From NCBI RefSeq assembly GCF_010726765.1, contig NZ_AP022601.1, forward strand, positions 2,914,001-2,978,000: a stretch of DNA of 64,000 bases. The letters run 5' to 3'. This DNA is from Mycobacterium gallinarum (GTDB lineage Bacteria; Actinomycetota; Actinomycetes; Mycobacteriales; Mycobacteriaceae). The position numbers were made by a program, and so were the translations under genes. This document shows positions 6,150 to 62,343 of this stretch, piece after piece. Below the pieces are notes generated by a model, which was given only the letters and a program-made list of their open reading frames with translations, did no database searches and was not told where the DNA came from. How positions within the stretch are numbered: position 1 is the stretch's first letter; each line of letters starts with the position of its first letter.

Positions 6150-7333
6150 TCGGCCGGTGCGGGGGCCGCGTCGGGAAGCGTGAGGTTCTTTCCGGTGTCG
6201 GCGTCGAAGATCGTCAGCTTCGACGTGTCGAACGCCAGCTGTACCGTGTCGCCCTGCTTCGCCTGGGACTCGGTGGAAACCCGTGCCACGAACTCGTTTT
6301 CGGCGACCCCCGACTCACTGGCCAACTCGGCGAGCTGGGCGGCCCGCGCACCCTCGCCCTCACTCTTGAAGTGCAGATACTTGTCCGCGCCCAGCGATTC
6401 CACGAAGTCGACCGTCACGTCGAACGTCAGCGCCCTGATCCGCGCGTAGCCGTCCATCACCGCGGCGTCCTCGAGGTGCTCCGGCCGGATGCCGACGATG
6501 ACGTTGTTGGGGGTTTGGTGCCTGGCGATCAGGTCGTGGACTTCCTGGGTCAGCGTGACTTCGCCGAACGGCAGGCGCACGCCGACGTCGGTCATGGTGG
6601 CCGGGAAGAAGTTCATCGCAGGCGATCCGATGAAGCCCGCGACGAACAGGTTGGCCGGCCGGTTGTACAGCTCCTCTGGCGTGCCGATCTGCTGTGCCTC
6701 CCCGGCGAGCAGGACCACCACGCGGTCCCCCAGCGTCATCGCCTCGGTCTGGTCATGGGTGACGTAGACGGTGGTGGTGCCCAGCTTGTCCTGCAGGCGG
6801 GCGATCTCCGAACGCATCTGCACGCGCAGTTTGGCGTCGAGGTTCGACAACGGCTCGTCCATCAGGAACGCCTTGGGGTTGCGCACGATCGCGCGTCCCA
6901 TGGCCACCCGCTGACGCTGGCCGCCGGACAGCTGGGCGGGCTTACGGTCCAGAAGCTGGCTCAGGTCAAGGACTTTCGCGGCCTCCTCGACCTTCTGCGC
7001 GATCTCGGCCTTGTTCATCTTGGCCAGAGTCAGCGGGAACGCGATGTTCTGGCGCACGGTCATGTGCGGGTAGAGCGCATACGACTGGAACACCATCGCG
7101 ATGTCGCGGTCCTTGGGCGCCTTCTCGTTGACCCGTTCGCCGCCGATCCTCAACTCTCCGGAGGAGATCTCCTCGAGACCGGCGATCATGTTGAGCGTGG
7201 TCGACTTTCCGCAGCCGGAGGGTCCGACGAGGATGATGAACTCGCCGTCGGCGATGGTCATCGAGAGGTCCTTCACGGCCGTGGCGCCGCCTGCGTAACT
7301 CTTGGTCACCCGGTCCAACACGATTTCGGCCAT
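6146..7333 (-). CDS. sugC: SugC: trehalose ABC importer ATPase (MalK/UgpC type)
   Basis: This 395-residue ATPase powers the LpqY-SugABC importer, which recovers trehalose released during mycolic acid transfer (established for M. tuberculosis). Walker [10 protein letters not shown] is at 37-45, followed by the Q-loop, the signature LSGGQRQR, Walker B ([14 protein letters not shown]) and VTHDQTEAM with the H-loop. A C-terminal MalK-like regulatory OB domain covers about the last 150 residues. It starts 4 bases after the sugB stop and overlaps the SUFU gene downstream. Confidence 0.95.
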
Positions 7334-7337
7334 GGAG

Positions 7338-8174
7338 TTACCCCTTCACCGCGCCGGACGTGAGGCCGGCGACGATCCGTCGCTGGAAGATGAGAACAAA
7401 GATAATGATCGGGATCGTGATCACCATCGCGCCCGCCGCGATCGACCCGGTCGGTTCCTCGAACTGCGAACTGCCCGTGAAGTTGGCGATCGCGACCGGC
7501 GCGGTGATCGCACGCTGCGTCGCCGTCAGTGAAAGCGCCAGCAGCAGGTCGTTCCACGCGAAGATGAAGACCAGGATCGCCGCGGTGACGATGCCGGGCG
7601 CGGCCAGCGGGGCGATCACCTTACGGAACGCCTGCGCCGGCGTGGCGCCGTCCATCTTGGCCGCCTTCTCCAGATCCCAGGGGATCTCCTTGAAGAACGC
7701 CGAGAGGGTGTAGATCGCCAGCGGAAGCGCGAAGGTGATGTACGGAATGATCAGCCCCGGCCAGGTGTCGAACAATCCCAGCCTACGTTCGATGTTGAAC
7801 AGCGGTGTCACCAGCGAGATCTGGGGGAACATCGCGATCAGCAGCGCGACGCCGACCAGCAGACGCTTACCAGGAAACACCAGTCGTGCCACGGCGTACG
7901 CCGCCATTCCACCGATCAAGACCGCGATGAGGGTGGTGATCAGGCCGATGCCGATCGAGTTGATCAGCGCCGAGCTGAACGCATCGCCGGTGAAGATTCC
8001 CTTGTAGTTCTCGAACGTGACCTGCGTCGGAATCAGCTTGCCGTCCTTGACGGTTGACGTCGGCTTGAGCGAAAGGCTGAGGATCCACAGCACCGGCAAC
8101 AACGCATAGACGATGACGATGATGTTGACGACCGTCCAACCGGTCGCACGGCCCGCGCGAACCCTTTCGGCCAT
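7338..8174 (-). CDS. sugB: SugB: trehalose ABC importer permease
   Basis: This 278-residue inner-membrane permease has about six transmembrane helices and a MalG-like EAA loop ([15 protein letters not shown]) that contacts SugC. The open frame extends further upstream. I prefer the ATG at 8172-8174 because it follows AAGAAGAG, avoids overlap with sugA and gives a length close to Rv1237 (about 274). It lies 31 bases after sugA and 4 bases before sugC. Confidence 0.92.
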
Positions 8175-12103: not shown

Positions 12104-12496
12104 ATGAACGCCAGCGACCCGGAGCGTCCGGACCAGGCGCCGGTCGACTATCCGTCCGCACCTGGGTTGCCTCCGCCGATCTACCCCCCACCCGGATATC
12201 CAGGCGCAACGGGGTACCACCCGACCTACGACCCTTATCGGGCGGTCAAGCCTCCTGGCACGAACGGCAAGGCGATCGCGTCCCTCGTCACGTCCATCAC
12301 CGGCTGCGTGTGCTGCGCTCCGTTGGCCATCGTCGGCGTCGTCCTGGGTGTGATCGCGATGCGAGAGACCAAACACACCGGACAGGCAGGGTGGCGAATG
12401 GCGCTGGCGGGCACGATCATCGGCGGGCTGTTCACCGTGGCCTTGGTGATCGTCTTGCTGCTCTATTTTGCACTCGGGGTCTACACCCTCCGCTAA
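12104..12496 (+). CDS. DUF4190 membrane protein, small paralogue
   Basis: This 130-residue protein has a short proline/tyrosine-rich head (PPIYPPPGYPGATGYHP) and the same two-helix DUF4190 module as its upstream neighbour, including a CCAPLAIVGVVLGVIAM segment equivalent to the neighbour's second half. The pair looks like a tandem duplication whose heads have diverged in length. It lies 21 bases after the first copy and is likely co-transcribed. The function is unknown. Confidence 0.85.
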   Translation: MNASDPERPDQAPVDYPSAPGLPPPIYPPPGYPGATGYHPTYDPYRAVKPPGTNGKAIASLVTSITGCVCCAPLAIVGVVLGVIAMRETKHTGQAGWRMALAGTIIGGLFTVALVIVLLLYFALGVYTLR

Positions 12497-12524
12497 CCTC
12501 AACCCGGCCGCCGTCTTGCCGGCG

Positions 12525-13487
12525 CTAGGCCGGCGGGCTGAACCGCTCGCCCTTGCGCTCCATCCCCGCCGCGCGGCCCTTGCCTGCGATCACCAACGCC
12601 ATCTTGCGGCTCGCTTCGTCGATCATCTCGTCGCCGAGCATCACCGCGCCGCGCGCACCGCCGGCCCGCGACGTGTGCCATTCGTAGGCCTCGAGGATCA
12701 ACTCGGCGTGTTCGTAGGCCTCTTGGCGAGGGCTGAAGATCTCGTTGCCCGCGGGGATCTGGTCGGGGTGCAGCACCCACTTGCCGTCGTATCCCAGCGC
12801 AGCGGACCGCCCCGCGACCCGGCGGAAGCCGTCGACATCGCGCACCTTCAGGTACGGGCCGTCGATCGCCAGGATGCCGCGCGTGCGGGCCGCGACAAGA
12901 ATTCGCATCAGCACGTGATGGTGGGCGTCACCGACGTCGTAGCCCTCGGGCTGTTCGCCGACCTCGAGCGTGCGCATGTTCAGGCTGGCGGCCATGTCCG
13001 CGGGACCGAGGACCAGCGCCTGCACCCGTGGGGCGGCCGCGATCGCATCGATATTCGTCAGCCCTTCGGCGTTCTCGATCTGAGCTTCAATACCGATGCG
13101 GCCCAACGGAAATCCGTGCGTCGCCTCGAGTTGACCAAGCAGCAGGTCGAGCGCGTGGATGTGTGAGACATCGGAAACTTTCGGCAACACCACAATGTCC
13201 AGCGACGCACCCGCGGCCGACACCACGTCGATCACGTCGGCATGCGTCCACGGCGTGGTCCAGTCGTTCACCCGAACGCCGCGCAGCTGCCCGCCCCAAC
13301 CGGGCTCGGCCAACGCGGCCGCCACCGCGGCGCGCGCCTCGGCTTTGGCGTCGGGCGCGACCGCATCTTCGAGATCGAGGAAGACCTCGTCGGCGGGCAG
13401 GGACTTTGCCTTCTCGATCATCTTCGCGCTGCTGCCTGGAACCGAAAGTATCGTTCGGCGGGGTCGATAGCGGTTTTCCACAACCAC
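12525..13487 (-). CDS. HpcH/HpaI aldolase/citrate lyase beta-subunit (CitE-like) family enzyme
   Basis: This protein of about 320 residues belongs to the CitE-like TIM-barrel lyases that cleave or form C-C bonds on acyl-CoA or oxoacid substrates with Mg2+. Typical signs are the N-terminal RTILSVPGSSAKMIEKA, the metal region DEVFLDLEDAVAP, RVNDWTTPWTHAD and IEAQIENAEGL. I chose the GTG at 13487 because AGAAGGG lies 9 bases upstream. A longer ATG start at 13508 would overlap the divergent MgtE start codon head-on. The substrate is unknown, and the stand-alone CitE-like families are functionally diverse. Confidence 0.82.
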   Translation of the reverse strand: MVVENRYRPRRTILSVPGSSAKMIEKAKSLPADEVFLDLEDAVAPDAKAEARAAVAAALAEPGWGGQLRGVRVNDWTTPWTHADVIDVVSAAGASLDIVVLPKVSDVSHIHALDLLLGQLEATHGFPLGRIGIEAQIENAEGLTNIDAIAAAPRVQALVLGPADMAASLNMRTLEVGEQPEGYDVGDAHHHVLMRILVAARTRGILAIDGPYLKVRDVDGFRRVAGRSAALGYDGKWVLHPDQIPAGNEIFSPRQEAYEHAELILEAYEWHTSRAGGARGAVMLGDEMIDEASRKMALVIAGKGRAAGMERKGERFSPPA

Positions 13488-13493
13488 ACTCTT

Positions 13494-13499
13494 TACCCT
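13494..13499 (+). promoter_or_regulatory. -10 hexamer TACCCT for leaderless MgtE-type gene
   Basis: TACCCT ends 7 bases before the ATG at 13507 and no Shine-Dalgarno precedes that ATG. This is the arrangement expected for a leaderless transcript. The hexamer lies inside the region that would be the 5' leader of the divergent CitE-like gene. Confidence 0.45.
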
Positions 13500-13506
13500 T
13501 CTAGGC

Positions 13507-14799
13507 ATGGCGGCGGTGAACAGGGTCTATGCGGCCCGGCTGGTGGGGATGGTGGTGCTGGGACCCGACGGGGAGTCCCTTGGCCGCGTCCGCGATGTGG
13601 TGATCAGCATCAGCATCGTGCGCCAACAGCCGAGGGTGCTCGGTCTGGTCGTCGAATTGCTAACGCGCCGGAGAATTTTCGTGCCGATTCTGCGGGTGAC
13701 GTCCATCGACCCCGGCGCTGTGACGCTGGCGACCGGCAGCGTCTCGCTGCGCAAGTTCACCCAGCGCCCCGGTGAGGTGCTCGTGCTCGGCCAGGTGGTC
13801 GAAACCCAGGTCAGAGTCGATGATCCCGACCAGGAGCAGTTGAAGGGAGTCGACGTGTACGTGGTCGATCTCGGCATCGAACCGACCCGCACGCGCGACT
13901 GGATGGTGACCAAGGTGGCGGTCCGGCCTGCGCGACGCCTCGGCCGCCGCGGCAATGTGCAGATCATCGACTGGCAGCATGTGCAGGGGCTGACCCCGTC
14001 GGGACTGGCGATGCCCGATCAGGGGGTCGCGCAGCTGCTGGAGCAGTTCGTCGGTCAGCGCGCCGTCGAGGTGGCCGAGGCGATCCGCGAATTGCCTGAC
14101 AAGCGCCGCCACGAGGTGGTCAACGCGCTCGACGACGAGCGATTGGCCGACGTGCTGCAGGAGCTGCCCGAGGACGAGCAGGTCAACGTGCTCAGGAAGC
14201 TGCCCCCCGAACGGGCCGCCGACGTGCTCGAGGCCATGGACCCCGACGACGCCGCCGACCTGCTGGGCACCATGACGCCAATGGACGCCGAACAGTTCCT
14301 GCGCCGAATGGACCCTGAGGACTCCGAGGACGTGCGCCGGCTGCTGGCGCACTCACCCGACACCGCAGGCGGCCTGATGACGTCGGAACCGGTGGTGCTC
14401 GCACCGGACACCACCGTCGCCGAGGCACTGGCCCGCGTCCGCGACCCCGACCTGACCCCGGCGCTCGCATCGCTGGTCTTCGTGACCCGTGCGCCAACGG
14501 CCACTCCTACCGGTCACTACCTGGGCTGTGTCCACCTACAGCGGCTCCTTCGAGAACCGCCCGCAGAGCTGGTCAGCGGGATCGTGGACACCGACCTTCC
14601 GAATTTGGCGCCGGAGGATTCGTTGTCGGCGGTGACCCGGTACTTCGCCGCGTACAACCTCGTATGCGGGCCCGTGGTCGACGAGGAGAACCACCTGCTC
14701 GGCGCGGTGTCGGTCGACGACGTGCTCGACCATCTCCTGCCGCACGACTGGCGTGAACGCGAAGAGCCCGAGCTGTTCACCGCCAACGAGGGCGCGTGA
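13507..14799 (+). CDS. PRC-barrel + MgtE N-terminal + CBS protein lacking a channel domain (Rv1232c-like)
   Basis: This 430-residue protein begins with a PRC-barrel (YAARLVGMVVLGPDGESLGR), followed at about 180-290 by an MgtE N-domain of helical repeats (LADVLQELPEDEQV, ADVLEAMDPDDAADLLGTM). Two CBS motifs (TAGGLMTSEPVVLAP and GAVSVDDVLDHLLP) end near residue 415. In MgtE channels these modules sense cytosolic Mg2+ and gate a C-terminal membrane channel; here the protein ends after the CBS pair and has no membrane helix. It overlaps the next gene, a DUF1003 membrane protein, by one base (TGATG). A soluble Mg2+ sensor is inferred. Confidence 0.85.
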   Translation: MAAVNRVYAARLVGMVVLGPDGESLGRVRDVVISISIVRQQPRVLGLVVELLTRRRIFVPILRVTSIDPGAVTLATGSVSLRKFTQRPGEVLVLGQVVETQVRVDDPDQEQLKGVDVYVVDLGIEPTRTRDWMVTKVAVRPARRLGRRGNVQIIDWQHVQGLTPSGLAMPDQGVAQLLEQFVGQRAVEVAEAIRELPDKRRHEVVNALDDERLADVLQELPEDEQVNVLRKLPPERAADVLEAMDPDDAADLLGTMTPMDAEQFLRRMDPEDSEDVRRLLAHSPDTAGGLMTSEPVVLAPDTTVAEALARVRDPDLTPALASLVFVTRAPTATPTGHYLGCVHLQRLLREPPAELVSGIVDTDLPNLAPEDSLSAVTRYFAAYNLVCGPVVDEENHLLGAVSVDDVLDHLLPHDWREREEPELFTANEGA

Positions 14800-52174: not shown

Positions 52175-53761
52175 ATGACGGCACTGTCTTCCGGCCTCGG
52201 GCTCGGCAAGCTGCTGCTGGCCTTGGACCGCACGATGGTGACGCTCGTCGAAGCCCCCCGCGGCCTCGACATGCCGGTCGGTTCGGTGGCGCTCGTCGAC
52301 GCCGACGACGTCCGGTTGGGTTTGGCGGTCGGTGCCGGTTCCGCCGATCTCTTCTTCCTGCTCGGCGTCGCCGACGCCGAGGCCGTGCGGTGGCTCGAGC
52401 AGCAGTTCGCGGGTTCGGGAACGGTGCCGACGGCCATCTTCGTCAAGGAACCCACCGACGCCGCGGTAAGGAGGGCCGTCGCACTCGGTACCGCGGTCGT
52501 GGCCGTCGACCCGCGAGCCCGGTGGGAGTCGCTCTACCGTCTCGTCACCCACGCCTTCGACCATCACGGCGACCGGGACGACCGCGACTCGGGCACCGAC
52601 CTGTTCGGCCTCGCGCAATCGATCGCCGACGGCACCCGCGGCATGGTCAGCATCGAGGACGAACAATCACACGTGCTCGCGTACTCGGCGTCCAGTGACG
52701 ACGCGGACGAGTTGCGCCGCCTGACGATCCTGGGCCGCGCTGGTCCGCCCGAGCACCTGGAGTGGATCGCGCAGTGGGGCATATTCGACGCGCTGCGGGC
52801 GGGCGGCGATGTCGTGCGCGTCGCCGAGCGCCCCGAGTTGGGTCTGCGCCCGCGGTTGGCGGTCGGCATTCACCTGCCCAGTACCGATACGCGTCGCCCG
52901 CCGACCTTCGCAGGCACGATCTGGCTCCAGCAGGGCTCCGCGCCGCTGGCCGACGACGCCGAGGAGATTCTGCGCGGCGGTGCGGTGCTGGCGGCGCGGA
53001 TCATGACGCGACTGGCAGCGACGCCGTCGACCCACGCGGTGCAGGTGCAAGAACTACTCGGGCTGGCCGGCGACGATGTCGACATCGCTGCGATAGCGCG
53101 GGAACTGGGAATCACCGTCGACGGCCGGGCGGCGCTCGTCGGCTTCCAGGGCGGCCCGTCTGCACCAACCGGAGTCATCGCGTTGAGCGCCGGCGCTTTT
53201 CGTGCCGATGCCCAGACGGTCTCGGCCGGTGGCCGGGTCTACGTGCTGCTACCCAAGATCGGTGCACCGTCGTCGGTGATGTCGTGGGTGCGTGGAGTCG
53301 TGACCGCGATGCATCGCGAACTCGGCCTCACGCTTCGTGCCGTCGTCGCGGCCCCGCTAGGCGGACTGGCAGGCGCGGCGTCCGCCCGCGTCGAGATCGA
53401 CCGCGTCTTCGACAGCGCCGATCGCCATCCCGGCGCGATCGGACAAATCACCTCGCTGGACGAGGCGCACACCACCGTGCTCCTCGACGAGATCGTGTCG
53501 CACGTCGCCGGACGGTCGCGGCTCGTCGACCCGCGGGTGCGACTCCTGCGTGACGAGGATCCGATGCTGGCCGAGACACTGCGGGCCTACCTCGACGGCT
53601 TCGGCGACGTGGCCGCCGTCGCCAAGCACCTACACGTGCACCCCAACACAGTGCGGTACCGGGTTCGGCGCATCGAGACGTTGCTGTCCACCACGCTGGA
53701 CGACCCCGACGTGCGGTTGCTGTTCTCGCTCGGACTGCGCGCCACCGCCGACACGAACTGA
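52175..53761 (+). CDS. pruC: PucR/CdaR-family transcriptional regulator of proline utilisation (PruC-like)
   Basis: This 528-residue regulator has an N-terminal PucR-type sensor region, a GGDEF-like middle (VLLPKIGAPSSVMSWVRGVV) and a C-terminal PucR helix-turn-helix (VAAVAKHLHVHPNTVRYRVR, at about 480-500). It matches Rv1186c, whose homologue activates the proline catabolic genes in mycobacteria. AAAGGAGG precedes the ATG at ideal spacing. It is divergent from rocA-putA. The ligand is presumably proline or pyrroline-5-carboxylate, by inference. Confidence 0.9.
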   Translation: MTALSSGLGLGKLLLALDRTMVTLVEAPRGLDMPVGSVALVDADDVRLGLAVGAGSADLFFLLGVADAEAVRWLEQQFAGSGTVPTAIFVKEPTDAAVRRAVALGTAVVAVDPRARWESLYRLVTHAFDHHGDRDDRDSGTDLFGLAQSIADGTRGMVSIEDEQSHVLAYSASSDDADELRRLTILGRAGPPEHLEWIAQWGIFDALRAGGDVVRVAERPELGLRPRLAVGIHLPSTDTRRPPTFAGTIWLQQGSAPLADDAEEILRGGAVLAARIMTRLAATPSTHAVQVQELLGLAGDDVDIAAIARELGITVDGRAALVGFQGGPSAPTGVIALSAGAFRADAQTVSAGGRVYVLLPKIGAPSSVMSWVRGVVTAMHRELGLTLRAVVAAPLGGLAGAASARVEIDRVFDSADRHPGAIGQITSLDEAHTTVLLDEIVSHVAGRSRLVDPRVRLLRDEDPMLAETLRAYLDGFGDVAAVAKHLHVHPNTVRYRVRRIETLLSTTLDDPDVRLLFSLGLRATADTN

Positions 53762-54766
53762 TCAAAGGCTGCGCAGCTTGAAGATTCGTTCGGCGTAAGC
53801 CAGGTCGTCACGCCACAGCCTCGCGGCCGCATGCCGCATGAACGGCTTGATCAACGGCGCTGCGCGCGTCGCGTAGGCGAAGCCCGATCGGTCCGAATGG
53901 GCGATCACGGCCTCGATCACCGCGGTGCGCGGAGATCCGTCGGGGCCCGAACCCACCGGTGTGGCATGGGTTTCCACGACGCTGCCCGTTCCCTCCCCGT
54001 CGACAATGCGCATCACGATCGTCCGCGGCTCTGAGCTGGTGAATTCGGCGACGACCGGCACCCCCAGTCTGCCGATGCGAAAGGTGACTGCGACGAGGAA
54101 GCGGTCCATGTCCTCGGGAAGGTCATCGTCGGCGGGCGGAGCCGACAGCACTTCCAGACGGCTGAACGAGTACGGGTGAAACCACGACCCGTGCCACGGA
54201 TCCATCCGGTTGGCGATGATGTCGCTCGGCTCGCACGTTCCGACGAGCCGTGTCACAGCGTGCATCTGTTCGCCGTCAGGGCGTACCGGCAACACGGGCA
54301 TTTCGGTCGGTGTTTCTCCTCCGATGCTGTCGAGCCGCACCCACGCCAACACTCCATCGTCGTGGCAAGGATATGGCCGCCAACCGAACTCCCGTCCGCC
54401 CTCCAGTCGCAGCCCATGCCATGGACATATCAGGGCACCACAGTCGACCGTCCCGGTCGCGAGGTCTGCTCCAAGATGGGGGCACGCGCCGGGTCCCACC
54501 TTCAGAGCACCGTCCGCGCCACGCCAGGCAACCAGTTCCTGTCCCGCCACCGACGTGCCGTATGGCCGGTTCTTGATCGCGTCACTGGCGCCGAGGACGT
54601 ACCAGTTGCCGCTCGGCCGCTGTTGCGAACGCCGCAGTGCCGCGTCGATCACCGCCGGCACGGCGTCACGGTAGGTCGGTCGCTGTGCGGGCCACGACAG
54701 CGCGGGCAGCAGGTCGAACGGGACCGTCTTGGACAGCCGCGACCGAAGTTTCGCGATCCTGCTCAT
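53762..54766 (-). CDS. Rieske 2Fe-2S protein (DUF5914-type), last gene of carotenoid operon
   Basis: This 334-residue protein has a complete Rieske site C95-x-H97 (CPH) and C114-x2-H117 (CPWH). A C-terminal domain of ~200 residues contains RMDPWHGSWFHPYSFSRLEV, where histidines could bind mononuclear iron as in ring-hydroxylating oxygenases. It lies at the end of the crt operon, its ATG overlapping the FAD-enzyme stop by 4 bases. A carotenoid end-group oxidation or desaturation partner is inferred. Similar proteins occur in Streptomyces carotenoid clusters as I recall; the reaction is unknown to me. Confidence 0.72.
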   Translation of the reverse strand: MSRIAKLRSRLSKTVPFDLLPALSWPAQRPTYRDAVPAVIDAALRRSQQRPSGNWYVLGASDAIKNRPYGTSVAGQELVAWRGADGALKVGPGACPHLGADLATGTVDCGALICPWHGLRLEGGREFGWRPYPCHDDGVLAWVRLDSIGGETPTEMPVLPVRPDGEQMHAVTRLVGTCEPSDIIANRMDPWHGSWFHPYSFSRLEVLSAPPADDDLPEDMDRFLVAVTFRIGRLGVPVVAEFTSSEPRTIVMRIVDGEGTGSVVETHATPVGSGPDGSPRTAVIEAVIAHSDRSGFAYATRAAPLIKPFMRHAAARLWRDDLAYAERIFKLRSL

Positions 54767-56289
54767 TCTGGCTTGGGCCTTACCCGTTCGGCGACTCGAC
54801 TCAACAGCGCCATCCGCCCGTGGTTCGGGACCGTCTGCAGTGAGTGACCTCGAATGCCGAAGCGATCGAGAAGTTGGTTCGCCGCCGACCATCCCGTCGT
54901 CGCGGCGCGTTCCATCAGCGCGACAGGCAGATCGATGCGGATACCGTCACCGGCAAGCACCAGTCCGTCATCGGGAGTCGTCACGACCGGCCGGTCGGCG
55001 AAGTCGCCTGGCGCGAAGCGCGGACAGTCGTTGTGCCAGAGCACCTTTTCGGCGACGACCCGAGCACCGCGGGTCTCCGGATACAGCTCGTGGAGGCGAC
55101 CCAGCAGCCGGTCACGCAGAGTATCGTCAGGCGCCTTCACCGCGTATGAGTGCAGTTCCACCACCGATCCGCCATGCTCGCGTGACCAGTCCGCCGCCTC
55201 GCGTTCGTAGCGCTCGAGCACGCTGACGTTGTCCAGCGGTGGCCTGCCGCCTGTTCCGATGAACGGCGCTCGGTCGGAATTCACCTTCTTGTCCAGCCAC
55301 AACCGATGCACGATGAACGGCGGCGCTTGACCGAGTTTTGCCACGCTCTTGCGCCAGTCATCGTCGCCGATACCGGCAGAGTTCTCGACGATGCGTTGCA
55401 GGCCGGCGACATCGGTAGCCAGAACGACACCGTCGGCGTGTAGTTCCGCTCCGCCGTCGAGACCGACCGTCCAACTCTGCCCGTGTCGCACCTCGCTCAC
55501 CGACGTCTCGCGGTGTACGCGAACACCAAGCGACTCGAGGTAGGCGCCCAGCGGGTTCCACAGCGCCACATCGAAATTGGCATCGGCCACGTCGAAGATC
55601 AGCCCCTCGCGGGAGCCGAGAAAGTAGATGTGGAACATCGCTGCCAGTTCGGCTGCCGACAGGTCAGTCGGCTCCGCGAAGAAGCTTCTGGAGAAAACCT
55701 CGAACGCCAGATGCCGCGCCGCTGTGGGAAAGTTGATGTCGCGCAGGAAGGAGTCAGCATCCACGTGGTCGAGGCGGTCATAGATGTCCGGTACCGACAC
55801 CGCCGCCAGCGGGGCGGCCGCTCGCGCGTCGAGCCGGACGAGGTCTCGTAGCCGGAACGTGGGACTGCGCAGAGCGAACAGCATCGCGTTGAGCGGTGGC
55901 GTCAGCGGCAAACCCCGAAAAGTGTCGGTGCGGCCTTCGGCGTCGACAAGCGGGTAGTCATCCACCGGCTTGAGCATCGCGAGCGCAGGATCGATGCGCC
56001 GCAGCAGGTTTCGCAGGTTGTAATACTGCCGGAAGAACGCGTGGAAGCCGCGATTCATCGCGACCTCAGAGTCATCGGAAAGTCGCTCGGTCCATCCGCC
56101 GACCCGGCCGCCCAGGTAGCCCTGGCGCTCGATGAGGTCCACCGCGACGCCCCGCTCGGCCAATCCCGTGGCCGCAGCAAGGCCCGCGATGCCTGCGCCG
56201 ACCACGACGACGCGAGGGCGCTCTGCCAGTTCAGATGCGTTCGCCACGCCAGATGGCGCGGGATGGGTCTGAGCGCGCGAATCGGTCAT
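54763..56289 (-). CDS. crtU: FAD-dependent carotenoid desaturase-like enzyme (CrtU-like)
   Basis: This 508-residue protein is of the phytoene-desaturase/amine-oxidase superfamily. The dinucleotide motif VVVVGAGIAGLAAATGLAER is at about 26-45, GGRVGGW follows, and a C-terminal FAD motif GLVLAGDGIRIDLPVALMER is present. NRGFHAFFRQYYNLRNLLRR is characteristic of CrtU/carotene desaturases that make aromatic end groups. Its ATG overlaps the methyltransferase stop (ATGA) and its stop overlaps the Rieske start. Aromatisation of a beta ring would require a lycopene cyclase, which is not seen in this window. Confidence 0.7.
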   Translation of the reverse strand: MTDSRAQTHPAPSGVANASELAERPRVVVVGAGIAGLAAATGLAERGVAVDLIERQGYLGGRVGGWTERLSDDSEVAMNRGFHAFFRQYYNLRNLLRRIDPALAMLKPVDDYPLVDAEGRTDTFRGLPLTPPLNAMLFALRSPTFRLRDLVRLDARAAAPLAAVSVPDIYDRLDHVDADSFLRDINFPTAARHLAFEVFSRSFFAEPTDLSAAELAAMFHIYFLGSREGLIFDVADANFDVALWNPLGAYLESLGVRVHRETSVSEVRHGQSWTVGLDGGAELHADGVVLATDVAGLQRIVENSAGIGDDDWRKSVAKLGQAPPFIVHRLWLDKKVNSDRAPFIGTGGRPPLDNVSVLERYEREAADWSREHGGSVVELHSYAVKAPDDTLRDRLLGRLHELYPETRGARVVAEKVLWHNDCPRFAPGDFADRPVVTTPDDGLVLAGDGIRIDLPVALMERAATTGWSAANQLLDRFGIRGHSLQTVPNHGRMALLSRVAERVRPKPE

Positions 56290-56999
56290 CGTCGTGGGGC
56301 CTGCCCCAGGAAAGTGTGCACGATGTTGCGCTGCCAACCGGGCATCGTCTCGCTGCGGACGGACTCGAAGCCGTTCGCCTGCATCCTGTGCCGGAAGGCT
56401 TCCACGCCGTCGAAGGTGTTCACACTGCGCCGGAGGTAGGTGTAGAGCGAGGCATCACCACTGCGCAAGCGACCGCTGGGAATGATGATCGCGGTACACA
56501 CCGCGTTCCACACCGCCGTGGCGAACTTGGAATCGCGGACCGAGTATTCGTGCACTGCAAGCGTTCCGCCCGGTCGCAGGAGTTCACGAAACCTGCGTAG
56601 CTGCCCGTCTCTGTCGGTGACGTTGCGGATCAGGTAAGCCGCCAGGATGCCGTCGAACGGTCCGCCGACGCCGGCGTCGGCAAGGTCCTCGATCCGAGAC
56701 TGCACGAAGCTGACCGACGACGGCCACGCTTTCGCCCGCGCCTGTGTCAGCATCCCCTCCGAGGCGTCGACCGCGACGATCTCGGCTTCGGGCGCGACGG
56801 CCAGCAGCGCCGCGGTCGACGCCCCGGTGCCGCATCCGGCGTCGAGCAGGCGTAACCCACGGCCATCGTCGGCGATCCGCATACGCTGCGCCGAGAGTCG
56901 CAGGTGATCGTGGTAGCCAGGATTGGCGCCGACGAGCTTGTCGTAGGCAGGCGCCCCGGCGTCAAACGCACCGGGAATCTCGTTGGAGGACAGACTCAC
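56286..56999 (-). CDS. Class I methyltransferase of the carotenoid operon (CrtT-like)
   Basis: This 237-residue protein has AdoMet motif I LLDAGCGTG at 51-59, an acidic strand end IVAVDASEGM and the ubiE-like segment DGILAAYLIRNVTDRDGQL. The GTG at 56999 is preceded by AAGGAG, which decides it against a longer frame. It lies 37 bases after crtB and overlaps the CrtU-like gene by 4 bases. The order methyltransferase-CrtU recalls crtT-crtU of Streptomyces griseus; the methyl acceptor is unknown (carotenoid or quinone). Confidence 0.75.
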   Translation of the reverse strand: MSLSSNEIPGAFDAGAPAYDKLVGANPGYHDHLRLSAQRMRIADDGRGLRLLDAGCGTGASTAALLAVAPEAEIVAVDASEGMLTQARAKAWPSSVSFVQSRIEDLADAGVGGPFDGILAAYLIRNVTDRDGQLRRFRELLRPGGTLAVHEYSVRDSKFATAVWNAVCTAIIIPSGRLRSGDASLYTYLRRSVNTFDGVEAFRHRMQANGFESVRSETMPGWQRNIVHTFLGQAPRR

Positions 57000-57036
57000 A
57001 GCGTCTCCTTGGTGACCAGCGCCCAACGGTCCATCG

Positions 57037-57984
57037 TCACGTCCCTGAATGGCGCACTCGGGCGACCCACGCTTCGATGAACCCGCGACCAGCGACCTGG
57101 AGTCGGCGGCCCGTGCCGACGGTGGCGCGTTGATCGAATACCGCGAATTCGAGTTCTTCGATGCGGTCGAGGATTTCAGAGTACAACGTGAGCGCAGCCG
57201 AAATGCACGGTCTCGATCGAGGATGAAGCAGGGCAATGCCCTGCTCGGCGAACCGGTAGATGCGTCTGGTCTCCGCGTGCTGTTCCTCCAGAGCGCGCCG
57301 CACTCGCGGGTCGGTCTGGCGATGGTCGTGACACCAGTTCAGAACGTCGCGGTCCACGTCGTGGACGGCCAGTTCGTCGGCGGGTAGATAGATCCGTCCG
57401 CGCTGCAGGTCTTCATCGACATCGCGCAGGAAGTTGGTGAGCTGGAACGCCTTTCCGAGTGCTGCGGCGTACGGTGCAGCCTCGGTGGATTCGCAGACGG
57501 TACCCAGGACGGGCAGCATTTGAAGTCCGATCACTTCGGCGGAGCCGTACATGTATCGGTCGAGTGCAGCGCGATCGGGGTAGTCGGTGGTCGTCAGATC
57601 CATTCGCATCGAGGACAGGAAGTCGTCGAAGTGTTCCCACGGGATGCCATATCTGCGCGCGGTGTCGACCACCGCCGCCAACGACGGATCACCATCATCG
57701 GTGGCGCCGGTCGTCATGCGGTTGAACAACCGTGTCGCCAACCGCTGCAATTCATCCGAACGCTCCGCGCTGGACAGCGACGGGTCGAAGTCGTCCAGGA
57801 TGTCATCGGCTCGCCGAGCGAATCCGTAGAGCGCGTGCACGGCGGGACGCTGCTGCGGGGTGAGCAACCTCGTGGCAAGGAAGAACGTGCGACCGTGCTG
57901 CGAGTTCAAGGTGCGGCAGCGTCGGTAGGCGTCCCGCAACACGGGGTCGTGGACACCGGCGGCATGGAGTTCTGAGCTGATCAT
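57037..57984 (-). CDS. crtB: Phytoene synthase
   Basis: This 315-residue trans-isoprenyl diphosphate synthase condenses two geranylgeranyl diphosphates to phytoene. It has GRTFFLATRLLTPQQRPAVH, the first aspartate motif in RRADDILDD, YMYGSAEVIGLQMLPVLG and the second motif LRDVDEDLQRGRIYLP. The ATG overlaps the crtI stop (ATGA at 57981-57984). It ends 37 bases before the methyltransferase gene. Confidence 0.95.
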   Translation of the reverse strand: MISSELHAAGVHDPVLRDAYRRCRTLNSQHGRTFFLATRLLTPQQRPAVHALYGFARRADDILDDFDPSLSSAERSDELQRLATRLFNRMTTGATDDGDPSLAAVVDTARRYGIPWEHFDDFLSSMRMDLTTTDYPDRAALDRYMYGSAEVIGLQMLPVLGTVCESTEAAPYAAALGKAFQLTNFLRDVDEDLQRGRIYLPADELAVHDVDRDVLNWCHDHRQTDPRVRRALEEQHAETRRIYRFAEQGIALLHPRSRPCISAALTLYSEILDRIEELEFAVFDQRATVGTGRRLQVAGRGFIEAWVARVRHSGT

Positions 57985-59495
57985 GATTGCACCACCCGTA
58001 GTTGGCGTCGCCGGGTCACGGCGCCGGTGATTCTGTCGGCGGCCAGGCGGCCCGACATCAACGCTGTGGGAACACCTACCCCCGGCACTGTCGAGGATCC
58101 GGCGAGGACGGCGTTGTCGATACCGCGCACGGTGTTCGCCGGCCGGAACGGACCGGTCTGCCCGAAGGTGTGGGCCAGCGCGAACGGCGTGCCCGCCAGC
58201 ATGCCCTGGCGCGCCCAGTCCGCAGGGTCGACGACGTGCAGCAGTTCGGCGCCGCGGCCGAGCGACGGCATCCGGTTCTGGACGGCCCGCAAGATGCTGT
58301 CGGTGTATGCCGGACCCGTTGCGGCCCAATCGACATTGCCCACAGCGGTGTTCGGCGCGGGAGCCAGGATGTAGAGCAGATCGCGACCGGCGGGCGCCAG
58401 CCCCGCGTCACCCGCCGTGGGCCTGGTGACAAGCAGCGACGGGTCGCCCATCACCCGTCCGTCGTCGATGATGTCCCGGAATGTCTGCTGCCAGGCCTGG
58501 CCGAACAGAATGGTGTGGTGGCCGACGTCGGGATCGACCGCCTGGCAACCGACGTGCGCGACGACGGCCGATGGTGCGGGCCGAAGCCGAAGCAGCCTGC
58601 GCGGTTCACGGCCGAGGAGGCGATAGGTCTCCGGTAGCTCCGTGGTCAGCACGACCGCGTCTGCCGGGACACGCTCACCGGTGCTGGTGTGCACGGCCGT
58701 CACCTCTGACCCACTGCGCTCCAGTGCGGAAACTGCGGCGCTGTAACGGAATTGGACTCCTGCACCGGCGGCGGCCGCGGCCAGCGCATCAGGCAGGGCG
58801 CGCATGCCGCCGCGCGGGAAGAAGACTCCGGAGATGGTGTCCATGTAGGCGATCACGGCGTATACGGCCAGTGCCCGCTGCGGCGGGACCCCGGCGTACA
58901 GCGCTTGAAAGGTGAACACCCGCCGCAGCCGTTCGTCGCTGATGAACTTGCGCACCATGCGATCCCACCGACGAAAGCCGCCGATGGCCGTCAACCGCGC
59001 CAGCGCAGGCGTGAGCAGTGACAGCGGTGAGTCGAAGTTCGATGCGATGAAACCGTCGAACTCGACGTCATAGAGCCGGGTCAGCCAGTCACGTAGCTGC
59101 AGGTAGCCGTCGGCCTGCCCGCGGCCCGCGAACCGCTCGATCTCGGCGGCCATCGCCTCTCGGTCGCTGTGCACGTTCAAGGAGCTGCCGTCGGCGAACG
59201 ACGCGTGGTAAGCCGGATCGACCCGCATGAGGTCGAGGCGATCGGACAGCGATTCGCCGACGGCAGCGAATGCGTCGTCGATGAGGTCAGGCATCGTCAG
59301 CACGGTCGGGCCCGTATCGAGGCGGTATCCGTCGATGTCGAGGCGCCCCACCCGTCCCCCGGGATGTGGCGCCCGTTCGATCACCGTGACCTCCCGGCCA
59401 CGCCCTGCGAGATGCAGAGCCGCCGACAGCCCCGCAAGGCCCGCACCGACCACGACCACCCGCTGGGCGTTGCCTCCAATGGTTTTCACGATCAC
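57981..59495 (-). CDS. crtI: Phytoene desaturase
   Basis: This 504-residue CrtI-type FAD enzyme introduces double bonds into phytoene to give lycopene or a related intermediate. FAD-binding VVVVGAGLAGLSAALHLAGR is near residue 12, and the C-terminal signature includes TVPGVGVPTALMSGRLAADR. FPRGGMRALPDALA and LDTGPTVLTMPDLIDD are typical. I use the GTG at 59495, which overlaps the crtE stop as GTGA, in keeping with the 4-base overlaps elsewhere in the operon; a second GTG two codons later is possible. Confidence 0.93.
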   Translation of the reverse strand: MIVKTIGGNAQRVVVVGAGLAGLSAALHLAGRGREVTVIERAPHPGGRVGRLDIDGYRLDTGPTVLTMPDLIDDAFAAVGESLSDRLDLMRVDPAYHASFADGSSLNVHSDREAMAAEIERFAGRGQADGYLQLRDWLTRLYDVEFDGFIASNFDSPLSLLTPALARLTAIGGFRRWDRMVRKFISDERLRRVFTFQALYAGVPPQRALAVYAVIAYMDTISGVFFPRGGMRALPDALAAAAAGAGVQFRYSAAVSALERSGSEVTAVHTSTGERVPADAVVLTTELPETYRLLGREPRRLLRLRPAPSAVVAHVGCQAVDPDVGHHTILFGQAWQQTFRDIIDDGRVMGDPSLLVTRPTAGDAGLAPAGRDLLYILAPAPNTAVGNVDWAATGPAYTDSILRAVQNRMPSLGRGAELLHVVDPADWARQGMLAGTPFALAHTFGQTGPFRPANTVRGIDNAVLAGSSTVPGVGVPTALMSGRLAADRITGAVTRRRQLRVVQS

Positions 59496-60625
59496 GCCGT
59501 CCGTGCAGTGCATGCCGTGGCCATGTCCGCCAAGGCCACTCGGACCTCTGGGCGCACGTCGGCACCGTCGACGAGCGTCAGGGCATGCGTGAGCCGCGAG
59601 TCGATCAGTTTCTCGATCCAATCGACGGCGCCGGTGGCGACGATCAGTTCACGCCAGCGGTTGATGTCGTCGACGTCGAGGGCGTCCGCGCGCATCAGGC
59701 CGCGCAGTTGCCTGCGCAGCACCCTGTCCGCCAGGTGGTAGGCGGCCGCTACGACGGTTGTCGCCTTGCCCTCCAAAAGGTCGCTGCCGCTGGGCTTTCC
59801 CGTGATCGAAGGCGATCCGAAGATGCCGAGTAGATCGTCACGCATCTGGAAGGCCTCACCGATGGCGTCACCGTAGCCGCCGAGCATCGCCATCACCGAC
59901 TCGTCGCAGCCCGCCATGGCCGCGCCCATTTCAAGTGGTCGCCGCACGGTGTAGTTGCCGGACTTGCGGCGCGACACCGACAGCACGCGGTCCAGGGTCG
60001 GGAACCTGCTCGAGTCGTTGATCAGGTCGGCGAATTGTCCTATCGCGAGTTCGGTGCGCATCGCGTCATAGCGAGGCCAGACCCGCTCGAGGGCGGCGGT
60101 CGGGACGCGACTCTCCCGCATCATCTGGGCCGCCCAGACCAGGCACAGATCCCCAAGCAGCACCGCGGCGGATTCTCCGAAACGATCCGGCGATCCGCGC
60201 AACGCCCGCCGCCGATACCACTGCGCGAATGCGATGTGGCCGGCGTCTCGGCCCCGACGCAGGGTGGAGCTATCCATGACATCGTCCTGCAAGAGGGCGA
60301 ACGCGTGCAGCAGCTCGAGGCCGGCGGCTGCTCGCAGCGCCGCAGGATCGTGGTCGGCGCCGCACAACCAGCCCAGGTACATGAACGTCGACCGCACGCA
60401 CTTGCCTCCGTCGAGGAAATCGCGCAACACGTCGGCCGCGATGTCGACCCCGGCAGCCTGAAGCTCGGGTGCGCACCGGGTGTCGACGAACTCGGCGACG
60501 ATCCCCTGCACAGCACGGCGCAACGCACTGCGCCAGTGCTCGCCGCCCAGGTCGGCAGCCGGCCGCGACCCGTTGGCCGCCCGTGACACCACCTCGTCAA
60601 GCATGCGTGAGCCGATCGCTGACAC
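59492..60625 (-). CDS. crtE: Geranylgeranyl diphosphate synthase
   Basis: This 377-residue trans-prenyltransferase makes the C20 precursor of phytoene. The first aspartate-rich motif DDVMD is at 114-118 and the second region reads MRDDLLGIFGSPSITGKPSG, the common actinobacterial variant. GGKCVRSTFMYLG binds diphosphate. The GTG start follows AAGGAG at 7-base spacing. It is the first gene of the six-gene crt operon and is divergent from the carotenoid oxygenase gene. Confidence 0.93.
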   Translation of the reverse strand: MSAIGSRMLDEVVSRAANGSRPAADLGGEHWRSALRRAVQGIVAEFVDTRCAPELQAAGVDIAADVLRDFLDGGKCVRSTFMYLGWLCGADHDPAALRAAAGLELLHAFALLQDDVMDSSTLRRGRDAGHIAFAQWYRRRALRGSPDRFGESAAVLLGDLCLVWAAQMMRESRVPTAALERVWPRYDAMRTELAIGQFADLINDSSRFPTLDRVLSVSRRKSGNYTVRRPLEMGAAMAGCDESVMAMLGGYGDAIGEAFQMRDDLLGIFGSPSITGKPSGSDLLEGKATTVVAAAYHLADRVLRRQLRGLMRADALDVDDINRWRELIVATGAVDWIEKLIDSRLTHALTLVDGADVRPEVRVALADMATACTARTA

Positions 60626-60831: not shown

Positions 60832-62343
60832 ATGACGACCGCAGCCCGGACCCGCAGCACGGACAATCCCTATCTCAACGGCAACTACGCGCCGGTCAGG
60901 GAGGAAATCACCGCCCTCGACCTAGAGGTCACCGGAACCATCCCGGAGTATCTCGACGGTCGCTATCTCCGCATCGGACCCAACCCTCTCGGCGATCCGG
61001 ATCCCGCCCGCTACCACTGGTTCCTCGGCGACGGCATGGCGCACGGACTACGTCTGCGCGACGGCCAGGCGCAGTGGTACCGCAACCGGTGGGTGCGCTC
61101 TGCGGCCGTGGCGCGCCGGCTGGGCGAGACCTGGCGCGGAGGTCCGACCGCGGGCGGCTTCGACTTCGCGGCGAACACCAACATCCTCGAACAAGGCGGC
61201 AGGACCCTGGCCATCGTCGAGGCCGGCGGACGTCCGTACGAGCTGACCGACGAGCTGGAGACCGTCGGCCCCTCCGACTTCTGCGGCACGCTGTTCGGCG
61301 GATACTCCGCCCACCCCAAGCGGGACCCGGTGACCGGTGAGCTGCACGCCGTTTCATACAGCCCGGTGCGCGGGAACATCGTGAGGTACACCGTGACGGG
61401 TGTCGACGGGAAGGTGCGTCGTACGGTCGACATCCGTTTGAAGGCGCAGACGATGATGCACGACTTCTCGCTCACCGAAAAATATGTCGTGCTCTATGAC
61501 TTGCCGGTCGCGCTGGAGCTGCGCGGCCAAGCACAGACTCCGACGGCGAAGGCTGCCACGGGTCTGCTGACCCATGTCGTGGAGCGTCACGCGCTGCCGG
61601 ATTTCGTCCTGCGACGGGCCATGCGCAAATCCGGCCAGGGGGGCGGGGCGCCCTCGGGCGGCATGCCCTATCGCTGGGCCCCGGAACGGCAGGCCCGCGT
61701 CGGGGTGATGCCTCGCGAGGGCACCGCTGCCGACATCCGTTGGTTCGAAGTGCAGCCCTGCTACGTCTTCCATCCACTGAACGCCTACGACGTGTCTTCG
61801 CCGGAAGGCGACAGCATTGTGCTCGACATCGTTCGGCATTCGTCGGTCTTCACGACCGGCAACAGCTTGGTACCCGGCACGCAGACTCTGGACCGGTGGA
61901 CCGTCGATCTGGCCGCAGGCAGAGTTCGTGAAGAACGCCTCGACGACACCGTCCAGGAGTTCCCGCGGGTCGACGAGCGGCGCGTCGGTCGCCCGAACAG
62001 GTTCGGCTACGCGGTCGGCTATGTCGGAGGCTCCGCAGGAATCACCGAAGCGGACTCGATCCTGAAGCACGACCTGGAGACCAAACGCACCCAGAAGGCG
62101 ACCTTCGGCGCGGGTCGTGAACCCGGCGAGTTCGTCTTCGTGCCATCCAGCGCGGACGCTGCCGAGGACGACGGGGTCGTCATGGGGTTCGTCTACGACC
62201 CGGCCACCGACCGCAGTGAGCTTGTGCTCCTCGACGCGCAGACGCTGGAAACGGTCGCTACGGTGCACCTTCCGGCCCGCGTACCGCACGGATTTCACGG
62301 CAACTGGGCACCGACCCAGGGATCGGGCCCGCAGCGAAGCTAG
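60832..62343 (+). CDS. Carotenoid cleavage oxygenase (RPE65/CCD family)
   Basis: This 503-residue beta-propeller iron enzyme has its four iron histidines in GYSAHPKRD, TMMHDFSLTEKY, YVFHPLNAYD and the final HGFHGNW. The N-terminal NPYLNGNYAPVREEITA and RIGPNPLGDP are family hallmarks. It would cleave a carotenoid or related polyene to aldehydes. The ATG at 60832 was chosen because family similarity begins there. It is divergent from crtE and 14 bases before the histidine kinase gene, which suggests co-regulation with pigment synthesis. Confidence 0.92.
   Translation: MTTAARTRSTDNPYLNGNYAPVREEITALDLEVTGTIPEYLDGRYLRIGPNPLGDPDPARYHWFLGDGMAHGLRLRDGQAQWYRNRWVRSAAVARRLGETWRGGPTAGGFDFAANTNILEQGGRTLAIVEAGGRPYELTDELETVGPSDFCGTLFGGYSAHPKRDPVTGELHAVSYSPVRGNIVRYTVTGVDGKVRRTVDIRLKAQTMMHDFSLTEKYVVLYDLPVALELRGQAQTPTAKAATGLLTHVVERHALPDFVLRRAMRKSGQGGGAPSGGMPYRWAPERQARVGVMPREGTAADIRWFEVQPCYVFHPLNAYDVSSPEGDSIVLDIVRHSSVFTTGNSLVPGTQTLDRWTVDLAAGRVREERLDDTVQEFPRVDERRVGRPNRFGYAVGYVGGSAGITEADSILKHDLETKRTQKATFGAGREPGEFVFVPSSADAAEDDGVVMGFVYDPATDRSELVLLDAQTLETVATVHLPARVPHGFHGNWAPTQGSGPQRS

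What the first reader, a model, noticed from the sequence alone, without database searches (positions are those of the whole stretch)
53762..60625. Tightly coupled carotenoid operon with a methyltransferase-FAD-Rieske tailoring trio and no lycopene cyclase
crtE-crtI-crtB are followed by a methyltransferase, a CrtU-like FAD enzyme and a Rieske protein. Four of the five junctions are 4-base overlaps. CrtU-type aromatisation needs a beta ring, yet neither CrtY/CrtL nor CrtYc/CrtYd is visible. Either the cyclase is elsewhere or the trio acts on an acyclic or otherwise modified carotenoid. The Rieske protein has intact 2Fe-2S ligands and possible mononuclear iron ligands, so an oxygenation step not described for mycobacterial pigments is possible.
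Basis: partly seen in the sequence, partly recalled or inferred. Interest (0 to 1): 0.7.

Follow-up and report, generated by a model that had tools for sequence, protein, structure and literature searches.

The report
Mycobacterial aromatic-carotenoid operon with swapped cyclase
A mycobacterial pigment operon keeps only a 12-codon remnant of its own ring-forming enzyme genes, an unrelated and unlinked ring-forming enzyme likely replaces them (an exchange that relatives have probably made about ten times), and the operon's Rieske protein, likely the gene that published work calls a "methylesterase", is predicted to be an oxygen-using enzyme that would act on the ringed pigment.

Summary
In detail: crtE-crtI-crtB-methyltransferase-CrtU-Rieske, four of five junctions overlapping by 4 bases, no cyclase in the operon. 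Comparison resolves the puzzle. (1) A lycopene cyclase exists: an unlinked CrtL-type gene 1.3 Mb away. (2) The odd fifth junction (crtB/crtT) holds a 12-codon relic, MDRWALVTKETL*, built from pieces of crtYc and crtYd, which stand intact there in the 95%-identical sister (L067). The sister has no crtL match and an empty site. (3) This is general: all 89 CrtV-bearing actinomycete genomes tested have a lycopene cyclase, only 3 have both types, and in mycobacteria crtYcYd was likely lost about ten times, tracking crtL. So the trio likely acts on cyclic, not acyclic, carotenoids. (4) The Rieske protein (Rieske + DUF5914) sits at the position of Streptomyces "CrtV", in print a methylesterase. Sequence, a 94-pLDDT model and conserved iron ligands mark it as a complete Rieske non-heme iron oxygenase; it occurs in 52 of 54 CrtU-bearing genomes of a 296-genome sample. 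Its substrate and product are unknown, and the pigment reported for M. smegmatis is non-oxygenated isorenieratene. Known gene set, new variant; the recurrent cyclase exchange and the reassigned CrtV are the interesting parts.

The parts
59492..60625 (-). crtE, polyprenyl (GGPP) synthase
   Evidence: PF00348 149.5 bits
57981..59495 (-). crtI, phytoene desaturase family (start 59495 gives a GTGA overlap with crtE; 59489 is possible too)
   Evidence: TIGR02734 513 bits over cut-off 238; junction
57037..57984 (-). crtB, phytoene synthase
   Evidence: PF00494 226.7 bits; ATGA overlap with crtI
56996..57034 (-). Relic of crtYc-crtYd: 12-codon ORF MDRWALVTKETL*, made of the crtYc start and two pieces of the crtYd end; its stop overlaps the crtT start (GTGA)
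   Evidence: Comparison with L067, which has intact crtYc 7116-7460 and crtYd from 7460 at this place
56286..56999 (-). crtT-like, UbiE/COQ5-type SAM methyltransferase
   Evidence: PF01209 85 bits; same position as, and 50-54% identity to, the methyltransferase gene of two Streptomyces crt loci
54763..56289 (-). crtU, FAD desaturase/methyl-migrating enzyme family
   Evidence: PF01593 131 bits; 55% identity to the crtU-position gene of two Streptomyces crt loci
53762..54766 (-). crtV, Rieske non-heme iron oxygenase (Rieske + DUF5914), 334 aa
   Evidence: Pfam; conserved ligands; AF2 pLDDT 94.4; Foldseek and VIA-align matches to Rieske oxygenases
60832..62343 (+). Divergent carotenoid-oxygenase (RPE65 family) gene beside the operon; not shown to belong to it
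   Evidence: PF03055 382 bits; found beside the operon in L067 only, among the 80 named loci, some of which are cut short

Best explanation
The operon is crtE-I-B-T-U-V in which a 12-codon relic stands where relatives carry the cyclase genes crtYc-crtYd, and an unlinked, unrelated CrtL-type cyclase likely supplies the ring that CrtU would aromatise and that the Rieske protein CrtV is predicted to oxidise. Shown: the gene set, the relic, the lone CrtL gene, the sister genome with the opposite state, the near-exclusion of the two cyclases across genomes, and the Rieske-oxygenase ligand set and predicted fold of CrtV. Inferred: crtYcYd was deleted from an operon that had it; CrtL cyclises lycopene for CrtU; CrtV, fed electrons by a reductase encoded elsewhere, uses O2 to hydroxylate (or desaturate) the ring or a ring methyl; CrtT, present in most but not all relatives, methylates an accessory product. 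The likely main pigment is an aromatic carotenoid of isorenieratene or chlorobactene type, with CrtV acting before or after aromatisation.
Against: No enzyme activity or pigment was measured. M. smegmatis with crtIBYcYdUV is said to make isorenieratene, without oxygen, which speaks against a main oxygenated product. CrtU without CrtV: G124 and G209 of the class sample, G005 and G041 of the genus (84% and 89% complete). CrtV without this CrtU: G304 (only a 42% paralogue), G057 (CrtV itself broken), and the named loci L080 and L083, which keep crtT and crtV. Gain of crtL in this lineage against loss in the sister cannot be decided. Four of 14 genomes with crtYcYd-less loci have no CrtL match, all assemblies of 3.7 Mb or less. 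A few genomes hold both cyclase types. The third iron ligand column is Asn in one remote Rieske protein aligned earlier (L223).
Confidence: 0.72

Rival explanations
1. The trio acts on an acyclic or otherwise modified carotenoid, and no cyclase is needed.
For: No cyclase in the operon or window.
Against: A CrtL-type cyclase is in the genome; all 89 CrtV-bearing genomes tested have a cyclase; the operon carries a cyclase relic.
Confidence: 0.04
2. CrtV is not a tailoring hydroxylase but a helper of aromatisation: it would oxidise the beta ring so that CrtU can complete desaturation and methyl migration, leaving no oxygen in the end product.
For: CrtV is present in 52 of 54 CrtU-bearing genomes of the class sample, and the pigment reported for a crtUV strain is non-oxygenated isorenieratene.
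Against: G124 and G209 have CrtU without CrtV; L080 and L083 keep CrtV without this CrtU in the operon. CrtU/CruE of green sulfur bacteria and cyanobacteria are taken to act without such a partner (recalled).
Confidence: 0.28
3. The swap changes the product: crtYcYd makes two rings (isorenieratene), the mycobacterial CrtL only one, giving chlorobactene-type pigments.
For: CrtLm monocyclases are known from non-photosynthetic bacteria (a reference title in PMC2889829; recalled for Rhodococcus). CruF stands next to a second CrtU paralogue in six CrtL-bearing genomes (G014, G019, G035, G042, G052, G054).
Against: G000 has neither CruF nor that paralogue; CruF also occurs without CrtL (G001, G011, G028, of 45 genomes searched); ring number cannot be read from sequence here.
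Confidence: 0.3
4. CrtV is a methylesterase, as the published crtV label says, or only a Rieske electron carrier.
For: Label in PMC4694148 and PMC8539372 (passages).
Against: No esterase domain in Pfam; Rieske plus oxygenase catalytic fold and ligands.
Confidence: 0.03

Closest known systems
Streptomyces crtEIBV-crtUTY isorenieratene cluster (SCO0185-0191; S. anulatus plasmid L148, S. atratus plasmid L149)
   Same: Same gene set E, I, B, V, U, T; DUF5914 gene at the crtV position directly after crtB
   Different: Streptomyces has two convergent operons and a lycopene cyclase gene in the cluster; here one operon, no cyclase, CrtL unlinked
M. smegmatis crtIBYcYdUV locus (MSMEG_2347-2343)
   Same: Mycobacterial one-direction operon with crtU and crtV at the end
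   Different: M. smegmatis keeps crtYcYd, has no crtT in the listed locus and has crtE elsewhere
Rieske non-heme iron oxygenases of the VanA / dicamba monooxygenase type
   Same: Fold over residues 51-334, 2Fe-2S and mononuclear iron ligands
   Different: 22-27% identity to the VanA-type rows, 17-18% in the two best structural matches; C-terminal domain is its own Pfam family (DUF5914); sits in a carotenoid operon
Cyanobacterial CruH (synechoxanthin)
   Same: An oxidase of the ring methyl of an aromatic carotenoid (PMC8342508 passage); said to hold a Rieske domain (recalled)
   Different: Homology with CrtV not tested; no sequence was at hand

Membership tests
Rieske non-heme iron oxygenase (catalytic subunit) | Rieske 2Fe-2S ligands CxH...CxxH | tested here: met
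   C95, H97, C114 invariant and H117 at least 90% in 124 chosen sequences
Rieske non-heme iron oxygenase (catalytic subunit) | Mononuclear iron ligands (N)xxDxxHxxxxH plus C-terminal Asp | tested here: met
   N186, D189, H192, H197, D321 invariant; DxxHxxxxH in 57 of 57 fetched DUF5914 loci, the best matches, one of them the window itself
Rieske non-heme iron oxygenase (catalytic subunit) | Catalytic-domain fold | tested here: met
Rieske non-heme iron oxygenase (catalytic subunit) | O2-dependent oxidation of a substrate | not testable with these tools
   none
Rieske non-heme iron oxygenase (catalytic subunit) | Partner reductase or ferredoxin | not tested
   no search was made; none is in the operon
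CrtV 'methylesterase' | Esterase domain | tested here: not met
   Pfam at E 0.001 shows only Rieske and DUF5914, for the window protein and for the crtV-position protein of S. anulatus
CrtU (beta-carotene desaturase/methyltransferase) | FAD amine-oxidase fold family and crtU position in known clusters | tested here: met
   PF01593; 55% identity to the crtU-position gene in L148
CrtU (beta-carotene desaturase/methyltransferase) | Aromatisation of a beta ring | not testable with these tools
   none
CrtL/CrtY lycopene cyclase | Score over the curated family cut-off | tested here: met
   L009:9853-11040, TIGR01790 (subfamily model) 236.1 over 209.5; below the equivalog cut-off of NF045687 (217.6 of 500)
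CrtL/CrtY lycopene cyclase | One ring or two formed | not testable with these tools
   none
CrtYc/CrtYd heterodimeric cyclase | TIGR03462 domain pair in the genome | tested here: not met
   0 matches in G000; relic only
CruH | Sequence homology with cyanobacterial CruH | not tested
   no CruH sequence at hand; original paper not held

The most novel reading that the evidence does not exclude
Actinobacterial aromatic carotenoids are made with an oxygenase: CrtV, long filed as a methylesterase, is a dedicated Rieske oxygenase that works hand in hand with CrtU on the ring, either as an obligatory step of aromatisation or to yield a still undescribed oxidised (and CrtT-methylated) aromatic carotenoid; the cyclase feeding it is freely exchanged, so mycobacteria have swapped crtYcYd for crtL about ten times.
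Probability: 0.4. Interest if true: 0.75.

Novelty: new variant of a known kind. Interest (0 to 1): 0.55.

Why it matters
A 2010 comparative study (PMC2889829, passages read) states that the reason for several unrelated lycopene cyclase families is unclear, and suggests that functional equivalence makes them prone to horizontal transfer and to repeated fixation of one type at the expense of another. Here one genus likely shows that exchange about ten times, with scars, intermediates (both cyclases; a broken crtYc) and a sister pair in opposite states, so the idea can be tested with matched enzymes. It also gives CrtV, whose role is open, a chemical identity and clear knock-out predictions.

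Tried and rejected
Acyclic-substrate reading: rejected (cyclase in all 89 CrtV genomes tested). Methylesterase label: rejected. Exact SigF consensus GTTT-N14-18-GGGTA, modelled on the M. smegmatis crt promoter in PMC4694148: 0 matches in the window. Idea that CrtL goes with a CruF monocyclic pathway: only partial overlap, absent in G000. Gain against loss of crtL in this lineage: undecided. CrtL identities track operon identities over 22 genomes (Mantel r 0.49, 0 of 2000 permutations as high) and M. vaccae has a similar divergent neighbour, which favours old coexistence and differential loss; but the CrtL tree does not place the window's CrtL with support, and the left flank of the empty site is only 81% identical against 93% on the right, which would suit recombination. 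First AF2 run with 16 sequences was poor (pLDDT 55) and was not used. Longest-ORF listing of L208-L211 gave wrong frames and was used for one glycosyltransferase only. The automatic suffix match of the relic failed (0 bases, an off-by-one); the pieces were then compared by eye and their L067 positions found. CruH homology with CrtV: not tested; the original paper is not held. No paper was found by searches 'crtV'+'Rieske', 'DUF5914' and 'carotenoid'+'Rieske'+'crtU'; 'Mycobacterium'+'crtL'+'lycopene cyclase' listed two, of which PMC2889829 was seen in passages that do not describe a mycobacterial CrtL, and PMC10016063 was not opened.
Full report
WHAT IS THERE. On the minus strand of the window (G000:C1:2914001-2978000; genome of 6.3 Mb in 2 contigs, 100% complete by the tool, a Mycobacterium by its nearest CrtV homologues) stand crtE, crtI, crtB, a UbiE/COQ5-type methyltransferase, a CrtU-like FAD enzyme and a Rieske protein. 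Reading the junctions: I/B, T/U and U/V overlap by ATGA; E/I by GTGA if crtI starts at 59495. The fifth, crtB/crtT, has a 41-base spacer. The Rieske protein is 334 aa from 54766, as in most close homologues, and has two Pfam domains, Rieske and DUF5914.

THE MISSING CYCLASE. In the whole genome, PF05834 gives one strong match, 199 bits, at C1:4256864-4257898 (the other nine are at most 37.7 bits), a 395-aa CrtL-type protein over the NCBIfam subfamily cut-off for lycopene cyclases. TIGR03462 (CrtYc/CrtYd domain) gives none. So a cyclase exists, unlinked.

THE RELIC. The closest operon found, L067 (a Mycobacteriaceae MAG contig, 94.9% DNA identity to the window on one side of the junction and 94.5% on the other), has intact crtYc (115 aa) and crtYd (109 aa) between crtB and crtT, both TIGR03462 proteins. 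In the window the same place holds CG-ATG GAC CGT TGG GCG CTG GTC ACC AAG GAG ACG CTG TGA. The first 14 bases equal L067 after the crtB stop. By eye, TGGGCGCTGGTCACC equals the crtYd piece TGGGCGATGGTCACC (L067:7715) at 14 of 15 bases, and AAGGAGACGCTGTGA the crtYd end (L067:7775) at 14 of 15 (positions); the first two pieces share TGG. The relic's stop overlaps the crtT start by GTGA. The simplest reading is deletion of about 635 bases in two steps.

THE SISTER IS IN THE OPPOSITE STATE. The genome of L067 (G399, 6.5 Mb) has no CrtL match. At the crtL locus its DNA matches L009 up to 9607 and again from 11105, with 16 bases between: the 1,497 bases holding crtL are absent. Whether crtL was gained here or lost there is undecided. 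CrtL identities among 22 mycobacterial genomes track those of the operon (Mantel r 0.49, none of 2000 permutations as high), a similar divergent neighbour stands beside crtL in M. vaccae, and a few genomes carry both cyclases, so I lean to old coexistence and differential loss; the 81% left flank would suit recombination instead.

IT IS GENERAL. Of 60 genomes of the genus, 34 have crtYcYd, 15 CrtL, 2 both (G042, G043; in G043 one of the two cyclase domains is below cut-off). All 42 with CrtV (in G057 the gene is broken) have one: 29 crtYcYd only, 11 CrtL only, 2 both. Of 13 genomes with neither, none has CrtV. Of 47 further CrtV genomes in a sample of 296 of the class, 12 have TIGR03462, 36 PF05834 (E 1e-15), one both (G304), none neither. 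One CrtV genome seen (G077) was not tested. Named loci are the 80 best of 580 found; 74 of them show both crtB and crtV: crtYcYd intact in 58, partial in 5, absent in 11; crtT in 66; crtU in 72. The partial ones keep an end of crtYd or a broken crtYc. For 50 of the 80 the genomes were searched for CrtL: 10 of 14 without intact crtYcYd have it, the other four being assemblies of 2.0 to 3.7 Mb. Of 36 counted as having crtYcYd, two have a CrtL of mycobacterial type (L079, and L086 of M. vinylchloridicum, whose crtYc is broken), and two non-mycobacteria (L138, L143) have remoter ones. A tree was built of CrtI+CrtB+CrtV (quick, LG+G4) from 80 of 91 operons, 11 dropped for missing or weak crtI, crtB or crtV. 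On it the crtYcYd state, with L086 and the partial ones as absent, changes 11 times, at least 10 forced by starred branches; these are counts of changes, taken as losses because of the scars. For 59 of the 80 rows CrtL is known (two of them, L087 and L113, through the other locus of their genome): crtYcYd+/CrtL- 33, both 2, neither 2, crtYcYd-/CrtL+ 22. In 10 independent pairs CrtL goes with the loss in 8.3 on average, never against, and does not differ in 1.7 (p 0.004-0.016); without seven rows from small MAGs, 8 of 9 pairs, none against (p 0.008). Some genomes give two rows (M. pyrenivorans, M. vinylchloridicum, UC10).

WHAT IT LIKELY DOES. CrtV tracks CrtU: 54 CrtU-bearing (over 50% identity) and 53 CrtV-bearing of 296 genomes, 52 with both. 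In the genus sample 41 of 43 CrtU genomes have CrtV (misses G005, G041, incomplete) and 41 of 42 CrtV genomes have CrtU (miss G057). Every CrtV genome tested has a cyclase. So CrtV likely oxidises a cyclic or aromatic end group. CruH, which oxidises a ring methyl of an aromatic carotenoid in cyanobacteria, is a functional precedent (PMC8342508 passage). Against a main oxygenated product: M. smegmatis is said to make isorenieratene. Hence the rival that CrtV helps aromatisation. CrtT is optional (66 of 74 loci), so probably accessory.

NOVELTY. The gene set is known; the CrtL-for-CrtYcYd exchange with scars and the assignment of CrtV to Rieske oxygenases were not found in the searches listed, which cover open-licence papers only.

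Noticed in passing
60832-62343 (+): A carotenoid-cleavage-oxygenase family gene (RPE65 family; best NCBIfam model '8'-apo-carotenoid 13,14-cleaving dioxygenase', 518 bits, below its cut-off of 675) stands divergently beside the operon; among the 80 named loci, some cut short, it was found there only in L067.
   Followed up: partly
L212-L216, L218, L219 (G035, G014, G054, G011, G052, G019, G042): A second CrtU paralogue (40-43% identity) lies directly beside CruF (PF04240) in seven mycobacterial genomes; in M. lacusdiani (L211, CruF not searched) the paralogue has a family-2 glycosyltransferase near by (12422-13561). It looks like a second carotenoid cluster; the window's genome has neither.
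   Followed up: partly
L080:10001-10975 and L083:3893-4885: M. lacusdiani and a near-identical MAG keep crtI-B-T-V but have no crtU in the operon; the M. lacusdiani genome has only the 40% CrtU paralogue.
   Followed up: partly
L086:7323-7789: Mycolicibacterium vinylchloridicum has a broken crtYc with crtYd still present, plus CrtL and a second crt operon without crtYcYd or crtT: an apparent intermediate of the exchange.
   Followed up: partly
L084, L094: Two records titled Bifidobacterium breve MAG carry mycobacterial-type crt genes; they are probably misassigned or contaminated bins.
   Followed up: no
L090:7637-7744, L117:7539-7616, L081:7688-7783: Several crtYcYd scars keep a piece of the crtYd end just before crtT, as if something there, perhaps translational coupling to crtT, were being preserved.
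   Followed up: no
52175-53761 (+): A PucR-type regulator gene (PF13556) ends at 53761, abutting the end of crtV at 53762, convergent with the operon.
   Followed up: no
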